From Dictyoglomus sp. NZ13-RE01 (GTDB taxonomy: Bacteria; Dictyoglomota; Dictyoglomia; Dictyoglomales; Dictyoglomaceae), in assembly GCA_002878375.1 (NCBI GenBank), contig NIRF01000019.1, forward strand, positions 1 through 21,753: a stretch of DNA of 21,753 nt. Direction: 5' to 3'. Shown here in pieces: positions 1 to 17,651 of this stretch. How positions within the stretch are numbered: position 1 is the first letter of the stretch; the number at the start of each line of letters is the position of its first letter. Below the pieces are notes generated by a model. That model saw nothing but the letters and a program-made list of their open reading frames with translations. It had not been told where the DNA came from and did not search any database. The position numbers and the translations under genes are program-made.

Positions 1-615
1 ATTAATTCCAAAAGGGACAGTTTTTATCTTTGATAGAGAATTTACATATAGAAGACTGATGGAATTTCTAAAAGATAAAGGGATGAATTTTGTTATCAGG
101 TTAAAGAAGAATGTTTATGTAAACGAGAAGCTAATAACCATGTTGCCAAAAGGGATTTATGAAGGAGTTCTAATTCATGGGATAGTAGCAAATGTATACA
201 TAAGAGGATATGAAGTGATGAATGGGAAGGAAGATTTTTACGCATATGTAACAAGTTTGCCAAAGGAGAGGTTAAGTTGGGGGCTATACAGAGAAAGGAT
301 GAAAATAGAGGAGATGTTCAGGAATGAGAAAAATGAGTTCAATTTAGAATTTTTAAGTTATATAGATGAGGAAGAAGTTTTAGGGAGATGGTTAGTAGTA
401 TTTATGGGAGCATTGTTAGTTATTTACTTAACATCAAAAGTAGAGAAGGGAGAGCATAGAATAAAGTTATTAAAGGAGGAATTAAAGAGAGGAATAATAA
501 GCTTCATAAATTTTGCCTTAAGAATAATTGAGATATTAAGATTGAGATTAAAGATAAGCAAGAAAGGAAGAATTGTGCCTATGATTGGGGGTGATTAAAA
601 GTGATTACAGATCAG
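1..615 (+). mobile_element. IS4-like insertion sequence, 3' part (left copy)
   Basis: The transposase tail is followed by TGATTACAGATCAG. Aligning this copy with the inverted one at the right edge, similarity continues to ...GATCAG and then stops (TTCTTTT here, CTATTAA there). This places the element's 3' end at about base 615. The end lies only about five bases from the stop codon of the convergent LacI-type gene. The 5' end and any target-site duplication are outside the window. Confidence 0.8.
2..598 (+). CDS. IS4-family DDE transposase, C-terminal part (5' end outside window)
   Basis: The reading frame is open from base 2 to the stop at 596-598, so this is the last ~198 residues of a transposase that starts left of the window. 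An early FDREF probably holds the second catalytic Asp. Near the middle, LYRERMKIEEMFRNEK fits exactly the Y-(2)-R-(3)-E-(6)-K signature of IS4-type DDE transposases, which includes the catalytic Glu. The basic, leucine-rich tail ends MIGGD. A nearly identical tail occurs on the opposite strand at the right edge of the window, so the element is multicopy. The visible part has no frameshift; whether the whole gene is intact cannot be seen. Confidence 0.9.
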   Translation, partial: LIPKGTVFIFDREFTYRRLMEFLKDKGMNFVIRLKKNVYVNEKLITMLPKGIYEGVLIHGIVANVYIRGYEVMNGKEDFYAYVTSLPKERLSWGLYRERMKIEEMFRNEKNEFNLEFLSYIDEEEVLGRWLVVFMGALLVIYLTSKVEKGEHRIKLLKEELKRGIISFINFALRIIEILRLRLKISKKGRIVPMIGGD

Positions 616-15293: not shown

Positions 15294-16148
15294 ATGAAAG
15301 AGCTTCTCATTCTTCAAAGAAATGAATTAACAGAACATTATATATACAAGAAGTTAGCAAGCAAAATAAAGGATAGTCATAACAAAGAGATTCTAAATAG
15401 ACTATCTAAGGAAGAATTAGGTCATTATGAAAGATTAAAAGAGATTACAAAAACTGAAGTACAGATAAACAGGCTAAAATACTTCTTCTACTTGATCGTC
15501 ATAAAAATATTTGGGTTTACTTTTGGACTAAAATTGATGGAAAAGGGAGAAAAATTAGCCCAAAAAAGATATGAGAATATTTTAAACCTTTCTCCCCAGG
15601 TAAAAGACATTGTATTTGACGAAAAAGAGCATGAAGAAGAGATACTAAGTATATTAGATGAAGAGAGATTAAAATATGTAGGGTCTATGGTTTTAGGGCT
15701 AAGTGATGCTTTAGTAGAGCTTACAGGGGTCTTAGCAGGACTTACCTTCTCCTTGAGAAATACTCAGCTTATTGCTCTCTCAGGGCTTATAACAGGGATC
15801 TCTGCATCTCTTTCCATGGCAGGCTCCGAATATCTATCCACAAAATCAGAAGGAAAAGAGAAAAATCCAACTTTTGCAGCCATAATAACAGGCATAACCT
15901 ATGTTTTGGCGGTATTTTGCCTAATTCTTCCCTACTTTTTATTCAAACACTATGCTATCTCCTTTCTATTTAGCATAATATTTGCAGTACTTCTTGTATT
16001 TATCTTTACCTTTTACATCTCTATTGCCCAAGACCTTGAATTTAGAAAGAGATTTTTTGAAATGATTTTCATCATATTTTTGGTATCCACTATAACTTTT
16101 CTCATTGGAAACCTCGTTAAAACCTTTTTGGGAGTAAAGGTGGATTGA
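15294..16148 (+). CDS. Ferritin-like (rubrerythrin) domain fused to VIT1/CCC1 membrane domain
   Basis: A 284-residue membrane protein. The N-terminal ~125 residues form a ferritin-like domain with diiron-type motifs: Glu11/Glu14 (ELTEHY), Glu41-x-x-His44 (EELGHYE) and Glu110-x-x-His113 (DEKEHEEE). The C-terminal part (from ~128) is a VIT1/CCC1-type transporter with about five membrane helices, including GLSDALVELTGVLAGL and SMAGSEYLSTKSE. Fusions of this layout, such as MbfA, are known to export iron and resist peroxide; here I infer an iron or manganese exporter. It follows the OsmC-like gene by eight bases with only a weak ribosome site, suggesting translational coupling. A heptad-repeat terminator module begins four bases after its stop. 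Confidence 0.9.
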   Translation: MKELLILQRNELTEHYIYKKLASKIKDSHNKEILNRLSKEELGHYERLKEITKTEVQINRLKYFFYLIVIKIFGFTFGLKLMEKGEKLAQKRYENILNLSPQVKDIVFDEKEHEEEILSILDEERLKYVGSMVLGLSDALVELTGVLAGLTFSLRNTQLIALSGLITGISASLSMAGSEYLSTKSEGKEKNPTFAAIITGITYVLAVFCLILPYFLFKHYAISFLFSIIFAVLLVFIFTFYISIAQDLEFRKRFFEMIFIIFLVSTITFLIGNLVKTFLGVKVD

Positions 16149-16151
16149 TTG

Positions 16152-16207
16152 GTAACGCGTGACGGGTGACGAGTGACGCGTAATGGGTGACAATTAGGGA
16201 GCAGGGA
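16152..16207 (+). repeat. heptanucleotide tandem repeat, copy 1
   Basis: Eight consecutive 7-base units can be read: GTAACGC, GTGACGG, GTGACGA, GTGACGC, GTAATGG, GTGACAA, TTAGGGA, GCAGGGA. The core is GTGACGN, decaying into GGGA-type units that merge into the terminator stem. The array begins four bases after the VIT-type stop codon. A shorter version follows the lipoprotein gene (17505-17546). Its minus-strand translation gives SPITRHSSPVTR, a spurious repeat peptide. Confidence 0.85.
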
Positions 16208-16229
16208 GAAAAGCCCTGCTCTTTTTTTT
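16199..16229 (+). terminator. intrinsic terminator after the VIT-type gene
   Basis: GAGCAGGG and CCCTGCTC pair perfectly around a seven-base loop (AGAAAAG) and are followed by eight T residues. This is a textbook terminator, built onto the end of the heptad array. Confidence 0.92.
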
Positions 16230-16275
16230 ATGTTTTTCTAAAACCTTTTATAATATTAAAAAATATTTGAAAAAA

Positions 16276-16284
16276 TGATATAAT
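16276..16284 (+). promoter_or_regulatory. extended -10 promoter of the propeller lipoprotein gene
   Basis: TGATATAAT matches the extended -10 element. It lies about 32 bases before the ATG, with only TTAAAA at the -35 position. A GGGGGTG ribosome site follows downstream. Confidence 0.4.
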
Positions 16285-16316
16285 ATAATAAAATTTCCGA
16301 TATGGGGGTGTAGAAG

Positions 16317-17504
16317 ATGATTAAAATTAAAATTTTTATTTCCCTTTTAGTACTTATCTTTCTAATTTCAGGATGTTCTCCACAGCAACCTATACAGCCA
16401 CAACAACCTAACTCTTGGCCAAAAACTTTTGGCGGACCTAATGATGATGTGGCATATTCTATTAAGAAGACAAGCGATGGTGGATACATTGTGGCTGGAT
16501 ATACAGAGTCTTTTGGAATGGGAGGAAAAGATGTATATATTTTAAAGCTTGATGCAAATGAGAATTTAATTTGGCAAAAAACTTTTGGTGGAAGCGATGA
16601 TGAGTGGGCAAATGCTATTCAAAGAACAAGCGATGGTGGATATATTGTCGCTGGAACTAAACTTGTCCCAAAAGGAGGGATTAAATATGATTACGATATA
16701 TACATTTTAAAGCTTAAATCAAACGGGGATTTAGATTGGGAAAAAACTTTTGGCGAAGAAGGCACTGATGAGAAAGCATTCTCTATTATAGAGACAGCCA
16801 ATGGATACATCGTTGCTGGGTCTAAAGGAGGAGATGCGTATATTTTAAAACTTAATACAAACGGAAATTATGTCTGGGATAAAACTTTTGGTGGATATGA
16901 TGAAGATGACGCATATTCCATTCAACAGACAAGTGATGGTGGATACATTGTTGCCGGAAGGAAATACACTACAAATAGATTTGATGTATACGTAGTAAAA
17001 TTTGACGCGGATGGAAATAAAGTTTGGGAAAACACTTTTGGTGGAAGTAAATGGGATGAGGCATATTCCATTCAACAGACAAGCGATGGTGGATACATTG
17101 TGGCTGGATATACAGAGTCTTTTGGGAAAGGATGGAGAGATGTATATATTTTAAAGCTTGATGCAAAGGGAAATTTAATTTGGCAAAAAACTTTTGGTGA
17201 AAACGCTGATGAGTGGGCAAATGATATTCAAAGAACAAGTGATGGTGGATATATTGTCGCTGGATTAACTTGGTCCTTTGGGGCAATAGCAAGTGATGCT
17301 TATATTTTAAAGCTTAATGCAGACGGGAGTTTAATTTGGCAAAAAACATATGGTGGAAGTAATTGGGATTCGGCAGCTTCCGTTCAAGAGACAGACGATG
17401 GTGGATACATTGTGGCTGGACATACAGACTCTTTTGGGATGGGAGGAAAAGATGTATATATTTTAAAGCTTGATAAGGATGGTAACACTTACCCTACTAA
17501 ATGA
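16317..17504 (+). CDS. Lipoprotein with seven beta-propeller-type repeats
   Basis: A 395-residue exported lipoprotein. The hydrophobic leader ends in the lipobox LISGC, so Cys20 should be acylated, followed by a Pro/Gln-rich linker. Seven repeats of 46-55 residues fill the rest. Each begins W-x-K-T-F-G, passes through (S/Q)-I-x-x-T-S-D-G-G-Y-I-V-A-G and ends D-x-Y-I-L-K-L-(D/N)-x-x-G-N-L-I. Seven units of this kind suggest a closed seven-bladed propeller on the cell surface. Repeat 3 is the most divergent, with ANGYIVAG. Repeats 1 and 5, and 2 and 6, are very similar at DNA level, which points to recent internal duplication or conversion. It stands alone between two heptad-repeat terminators. 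Binding or scaffold roles are possible; its function is unknown. Confidence 0.9.
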   Translation: MIKIKIFISLLVLIFLISGCSPQQPIQPQQPNSWPKTFGGPNDDVAYSIKKTSDGGYIVAGYTESFGMGGKDVYILKLDANENLIWQKTFGGSDDEWANAIQRTSDGGYIVAGTKLVPKGGIKYDYDIYILKLKSNGDLDWEKTFGEEGTDEKAFSIIETANGYIVAGSKGGDAYILKLNTNGNYVWDKTFGGYDEDDAYSIQQTSDGGYIVAGRKYTTNRFDVYVVKFDADGNKVWENTFGGSKWDEAYSIQQTSDGGYIVAGYTESFGKGWRDVYILKLDAKGNLIWQKTFGENADEWANDIQRTSDGGYIVAGLTWSFGAIASDAYILKLNADGSLIWQKTYGGSNWDSAASVQETDDGGYIVAGHTDSFGMGGKDVYILKLDKDGNTYPTK

Positions 17505-17546
17505 GTGACGGGTGACGAGTGACGGGTGACAATTAGGGAGCAGGGA
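17505..17546 (+). repeat. heptanucleotide tandem repeat, copy 2
   Basis: Six units are read: GTGACGG, GTGACGA, GTGACGG, GTGACAA, TTAGGGA, GCAGGGA. It begins directly after the lipoprotein stop codon and merges into a terminator, just like copy 1. Over the shared part the copies differ mainly by two missing units. Confidence 0.85.
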
Positions 17547-17568
17547 GAAAATCCCTGCTCCTTTTTTT
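17537..17568 (+). terminator. intrinsic terminator after the lipoprotein gene
   Basis: GGAGCAGGGA and TCCCTGCTCC pair perfectly around GAAAA and are followed by seven T residues. Compared with the copy after the VIT-type gene, a G-to-T change in the loop has lengthened the stem. Confidence 0.93.
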
Positions 17569-17600: not shown

Positions 17601-17651
17601 TTGACACTTTTAGGAAATCATTCTATAATCATTTAGAAGGTTATCTAAATG
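17601..17651 (+). promoter_or_regulatory. consensus promoter and palindromic operator of the SdpR/SdpI-like operon
   Basis: TTGACA (17601-17606), a 17-base spacer and TATAAT (17624-17629) match the housekeeping consensus exactly. CATTTAG and CTAAATG (17630-17636 and 17645-17651) then form a perfect 7-base inverted repeat with an 8-base spacer over the predicted start of transcription. This is the expected layout for autorepression by the ArsR-type regulator encoded first in the operon. Confidence 0.8.

What the first reader, a model, noticed from the sequence alone, without database searches (positions are those of the whole stretch)
16152..17568. Direct repeats of a heptad-array plus terminator module bracket the propeller lipoprotein gene
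Two copies of the same compound element, tandem GTGACGN heptads decaying into TTAGGGA/GCAGGGA and fusing with a GAGCAGGG hairpin and T-run, lie directly after two consecutive genes. The heptads start within four bases of each stop codon and the last units supply the terminator stem. The copies differ by unit number and by a loop change that lengthens the stem. The layout could arise by duplication of a terminator with the gene (a cassette flanked by direct repeats), or by spread of a repeat family that uses or becomes terminators.
Basis: partly seen in the sequence, partly recalled or inferred. Interest (0 to 1): 0.62.

Follow-up and report, generated by a model that had tools for sequence, protein, structure and literature searches.

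The report
Heptad-repeat terminator after stop codons
Two genes in a hot-spring Dictyoglomus end in the same block, a run of 7-base repeats followed by a transcription-stop hairpin, and this block belongs to a small dispersed family that mostly sits directly at the ends of genes, a variant of heptad repeats already known in other bacteria.

Summary
Two modules (6 and 4 GTGACGN-type heptads, then a GAGCAGGG hairpin and a T-run) start 3 and 0 nt after the stop codons of a VIT1-family gene and a DUF5122 beta-propeller lipoprotein gene. The genome, almost certainly Dictyoglomus sp. NZ13-RE01, holds five full modules and seven heptad-only arrays. Ten of the 12 lie in sense orientation at or over a stop codon. 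The module is old at the propeller gene's 3' end: a sister-genus genome has the same hairpin, with two units, after its propeller genes. VIT1, comM and an outer-membrane gene carry it only in this genome, so it has spread. GTGACGN arrays occur patchily in many phyla, at stop codons in the stop-rich orientation, or inside genes in the stop-free orientation. Known relatives are the heptameric repeats of Xanthomonas/Nostoc (same stop-codon bias) and the TAACTGA repeats of Beggiatoaceae. Best reading: a slippage-prone heptad microsatellite, tolerated where it cannot harm coding, fused here to an intrinsic terminator and dispersed with it. Any added function of the heptads (three-frame stops, or a spacer before the hairpin) is inferred only.

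The parts
15294..16148 (+). VIT1-family membrane protein gene (host gene of module 1); stop TGA 16146-16148
   Evidence: Pfam PF01988 E 1.7e-15; same C-terminal end in relatives G001-G005, which lack the module
16152..16193 (+). Heptad array 1, six GTGACGN-type units, starting 3 nt after the stop
   Evidence: sequence; pattern search against shuffles
16196..16229 (+). Intrinsic-terminator-like hairpin 1 with T-run 16222-16229
   Evidence: alignment of five copies
16317..17504 (+). DUF5122 beta-propeller lipoprotein gene (395 aa); stop TGA 17502-17504
   Evidence: Pfam PF17164 E 3.5e-15; paralogs and homologs
17505..17532 (+). Heptad array 2, four units, starting directly after the stop
   Evidence: sequence
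17535..17568 (+). Intrinsic-terminator-like hairpin 2 with T-run 17562-17568
   Evidence: same hairpin after propeller genes of the sister genus

Best explanation
Each module is a heptanucleotide microsatellite lying between a stop codon and an intrinsic terminator. It is old at the 3' end of the DUF5122 propeller gene: a stop codon inside or next to a short stop-bearing heptad run (GTGATAA in the sister genus), then the GAGCAGGG hairpin. In this lineage the heptads turned over and expanded to 4-8 units, most likely by replication slippage or unequal recombination. The heptad-plus-hairpin block was then copied, by recombination or local duplication, to the ends of VIT1, comM and an outer-membrane gene. 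It persists there because in sense orientation it carries stops in all frames and is harmless only after a gene. The hairpin ends the transcript. The heptads at most back up the stop in all frames and hold the hairpin 33-61 nt away from the terminating ribosome. Shown: anatomy, copy number, homology across genera, unit-number change, absence in orthologs. Inferred: slippage, route of copying, termination activity, any stop or spacer role.
For: Five full modules and seven heptad-only arrays; 10 of 12 in sense orientation at a stop (estimate). The same hairpin with two GTGATAA/GTGACGG units follows the propeller genes of G003, whose stop lies inside the first unit. Unit number: 2 in G003, 4 in the window propeller, 8 in the C1 propeller. 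VIT1, comM and OMP orthologs end at the matching residue without the module. Stops in all three frames of the sense strand in all five modules. Heptad runs are by far the commonest short tandem repeats in loci of other phyla that carry the array (even without the GTGACGN runs). Rehm 2015 reports the same positional bias and suggested slippage (PMC4692102).
Against: Slippage does not by itself explain why arrays touch the stop so closely, nor why GTGACGN recurs in unrelated phyla. The in-gene copies in BioA and GuaA look like insertions rather than growth of a local seed. No strain-level length variation could be examined. Termination was not measured.
Confidence: 0.65

Rival explanations
1. 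Gene cassette: the propeller gene moved next to VIT1 as a module-gene-module unit, taken from a tandem propeller array by recombination between modules, so the flanking repeats are traces of that move.
For: Both propeller genes of this genome have an array just upstream and another at their own end. The sister genus has tandem propeller genes, each with the module. Relatives have a different gene after VIT1.
Against: No propeller remnant lies between the VIT1 stop and array 1. The C1 upstream array has no hairpin. comM and the OMP gene carry the module with other genes downstream. Overall synteny of this species is low (PMC5854780), so a changed neighbour is weak evidence.
Confidence: 0.2
2. 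Selected function: the heptads are a fail-safe translation stop (TGA/TAA in all three frames) joined to a transcription terminator, kept by selection.
For: First extra stop in each frame lies close behind the native stop in the five modules; orientation is nearly always sense at gene ends.
Against: Only 12 arrays for about 1,870 genes. Heptads without stop codons show the same positional bias in Xanthomonas (PMC4692102; stop-free by my reading of GGGAATC). A survey title states there is no evidence in eubacteria for selection of extra 3' stops (PMC6764699).
Confidence: 0.1
3. Insertion element: GTGACGN arrays are added or inserted by a specific enzyme or process active in many phyla, with a preference for stop codons.
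For: Same unit in many phyla; in-frame copies inside conserved genes, for example BioA in three Nitrospirae genomes and GuaA; arrays within a few nt of stops.
Against: No associated gene, no target duplication and no empty site at base resolution was found. Patchy presence (16 of 296 in one phylum) also fits independent microsatellite growth.
Confidence: 0.05

Closest known systems
GGGAATC / GGGGA(C/T)T heptameric repeats of Xanthomonas and Nostoc (Rehm et al. 2015, PMC4692102)
   Same: Tandem 7-nt units, mostly intergenic, downstream copies on the coding strand within 0-50 bp of the stop or overlapping it, upstream copies on the non-coding strand, variable unit number between related species.
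   Different: Different unit (G-quadruplex-forming, without stop codons); more than a hundred loci per genome; not fused to a conserved hairpin terminator.
TAACTGA heptamer direct repeats of Beggiatoaceae, Cyanobacteria and Bacteroidetes (MacGregor 2015, PMC4679880)
   Same: 7-nt unit with stop codons, patchy across unrelated phyla, unit number changes in 7-nt steps.
   Different: In the main genome mostly just upstream of start codons; other unit; proposed as translational regulator sites; no terminator.
Terminators built from DNA uptake sequences in Neisseria and Pasteurellaceae (Kingsford et al. 2007, PMC1852404)
   Same: A repeated genomic sequence sits in intrinsic terminators behind many genes.
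   Different: There the repeated signal forms the hairpin stem and occurs about 1,000 times or more; here there are five hairpins and the main repeat lies before the stem.

Membership tests
Heptameric simple sequence repeats at ORF ends (Rehm type) | Tandem array of 7-nt units | tested here: met
   6 and 4 units in the window; 2-8 in related copies
Heptameric simple sequence repeats at ORF ends (Rehm type) | Downstream copies on the coding strand within 0-50 bp of the stop or overlapping it | tested here: met
   10 of 12 arrays in this genome; 24 of 38 within 6 nt or overlapping in other phyla
Heptameric simple sequence repeats at ORF ends (Rehm type) | GGGAATC-type, quadruplex-forming unit | tested here: not met
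   Unit is GTGACGN
TAACTGA repeats (MacGregor type) | Unit TAACTGA, mostly just upstream of start codons | tested here: not met
   Other unit; placed after stops
Intrinsic (Rho-independent) terminator | G+C-rich stem-loop followed by a T-run behind a gene | tested here: met
Intrinsic (Rho-independent) terminator | Transcription ends at the T-run in vivo | not testable with these tools
   No RNA data for this organism
DNA-uptake-sequence terminator | Short signal present about 1,000 times per genome, inverted pair forming the stem | tested here: not met
   Five hairpins in 1.93 Mb

The most novel reading that the evidence does not exclude
GTGACGN arrays in unrelated phyla are the product of one widespread, still unknown process that inserts or extends 7-nt units at stop codons and inside genes, and the Dictyoglomus modules show such an array captured as part of a spreading terminator.
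Probability: 0.07. Interest if true: 0.8.

Novelty: new variant of a known kind. Interest (0 to 1): 0.42.

Why it matters
Heptameric repeats are reported to be over-represented in bacteria, but their origin and their pull towards stop codons are unexplained. Here one array can be followed across genera at a homologous gene end (2, 4 and 8 units), and the same unit elsewhere lies in frame inside conserved genes. That gives concrete loci on which slippage, insertion and selection can be told apart. For annotation, such arrays also extend or create ORFs.

Tried and rejected
RNA structure in the heptads: no better than shuffles. Known RNA family: none at Rfam gathering scores. Heptad arrays generally followed by terminators: 0 of 33 against 8 of 341 control gene ends, and no GGGAGCAGGG after arrays of other phyla, so the fusion looks specific to this family (strict scan with loops up to 8, low power; it does detect both window copies). 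Phage spread: no viral contig holds heptad plus GGGAGCAGGG, though 24 stretches hold the heptad array alone (not followed up). Paper search for the heptad letters: 25 papers, the 20 listed being unrelated plant, insect and primer-type papers by their titles. In-frame insertion is clear for BioA and GuaA but not for RfbB, where homologs have a loop of similar length. A changed neighbour downstream of VIT1, comM and the OMP gene was considered as evidence of rearrangement at the module, but given little weight because overall synteny is low.

Full report
What is there. The window holds desulfoferrodoxin, ferritin, OsmC and VIT1-family genes, then a DUF5122 beta-propeller lipoprotein gene, then arsR- and SdpI-type genes. 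Units are GTGACGN with variants such as GTAACGN and GTAATGN: 6 after VIT1 and 4 after the propeller gene.

Which organism. The genome has 1,927,013 bases in 34 contigs. Dictyoglomus sp. NZ13-RE01 is published as 1,927,012 bp in 34 contigs with 1,870 protein genes (PMC5854780). G004 has the length published for D. thermophilum, 1,959,987 bp. G003, at 1,855,560 bp, I take to be D. turgidum from memory of its size. These names rest on size matches only.

Copies in this genome. Searches give five full modules: VIT1 and propeller here, a second propeller gene on C1, comM on C8 and an outer-membrane-type gene on C10. Seven further places hold heptads without the hairpin: C1:324734 and six in a polysaccharide-gene region of C3. 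Ten of the 12 are in sense orientation and begin 0-4 nt after a stop or contain it. The exceptions are C3:38494-38595 and C3:47921-47989, which lie beside genes of the other strand. With 1,870 genes, ten of 12 is far beyond chance, even if arrays are confined to intergenic DNA (my estimate, with assumed intergenic fractions).

History. None of the six relatives has a three-unit array at up to 2 mismatches. But in G003 propeller genes end ..CAGTGATAAGTGATAAGTTGGGGAGCAGGGAGAGAATCCTTGCTCC plus T-run: the stop lies inside the first of two GTGATAA units, and the hairpin differs from the C1, C8 and C10 copies at 2 of 27 positions and from the window propeller copy at 3. One G003 copy has GTGACGG as its second unit. 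G004 and G005 propeller genes have looser forms. The module is therefore old at this gene's 3' end, and the heptads changed and expanded in NZ13-RE01. VIT1 orthologs in G002-G005, comM orthologs in G001-G004 and outer-membrane orthologs in G001 and G002 end at the matching residue without the module, so those copies were gained here. The downstream neighbour also differs in these cases, but synteny is low overall, so I give this little weight.

The same heptad elsewhere. In 296 genomes of the phylum of G034, 16 have a three-unit match (at least two of them are genomes already picked for having arrays). Of 95 arrays with enough flank, 43 lie inside ORFs of the antisense strand and none inside sense ORFs. 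The latter is partly automatic, because the sense strand carries a stop in every frame within three units. Of 38 arrays with a same-strand stop nearby, 24 have it within 6 nt or inside the array, against 2 of 19 for the stop of a convergent gene (ORF-based gene models, several loci per genome). Some antisense cases are clearly real genes: BioA, where many family relatives have a short TPEGL-like loop at that site and others have different inserts, and GuaA, which has 11 residues more than the PDB homolog 3tqi there. Other period-7 runs are common in the same loci.

Mechanism. Slippage on a heptad run explains unit turnover. Purifying selection explains orientation: the sense array is a stop in all frames and can only follow a gene, whereas the antisense strand is mostly open and can sit inside a gene. 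Recombination or local duplication explains the dispersal of a near-identical hairpin. The hairpin should end transcription. A spacer or fail-safe-stop role for the heptads is possible but untested. Not explained: why arrays touch the stop so closely, and why GTGACGN recurs. Rehm et al. saw the same closeness with a heptad that has no stop codons (PMC4692102), so stop content is not the whole story.

Novelty. Heptameric repeats near stop codons are known. The GTGACGN unit, its fusion with a conserved terminator, the cross-genus homology at one gene end and the in-gene counterparts are not described in the papers found. I file it as a new variant of a known kind.

Noticed in passing
window 17601-17629: Perfect 12 of 12 sigma-70 consensus match (TTGACA, 17 nt, TATAAT) upstream of the arsR-type gene, just after module 2.
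   Followed up: no
L159 (cobalamin genes of a Thermodesulfovibrionia genome): One genome's conserved genes carry several in-frame short repeats of different heptads next to each other (AGTAACA, GGGAGTC, CGTCACT), as if several heptad families were inserted at the same spots.
   Followed up: partly
L239-L268 (BioA of the family of G031): One BioA loop holds different inserts in different genomes: GTGACGN heptads, a palindrome, other heptads, or none; a hot spot for small inserts.
   Followed up: partly
G000:C3 33900-59300: Six heptad-only arrays cluster in a polysaccharide-biosynthesis region, possibly acquired DNA.
   Followed up: partly
G000:C17 8192-8371: Degraded fragment of the propeller gene with two internal stops.
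   Followed up: no
window 59-598: ORF that looks by eye like the C-terminal part of an IS4-type transposase at the contig edge.
   Followed up: no
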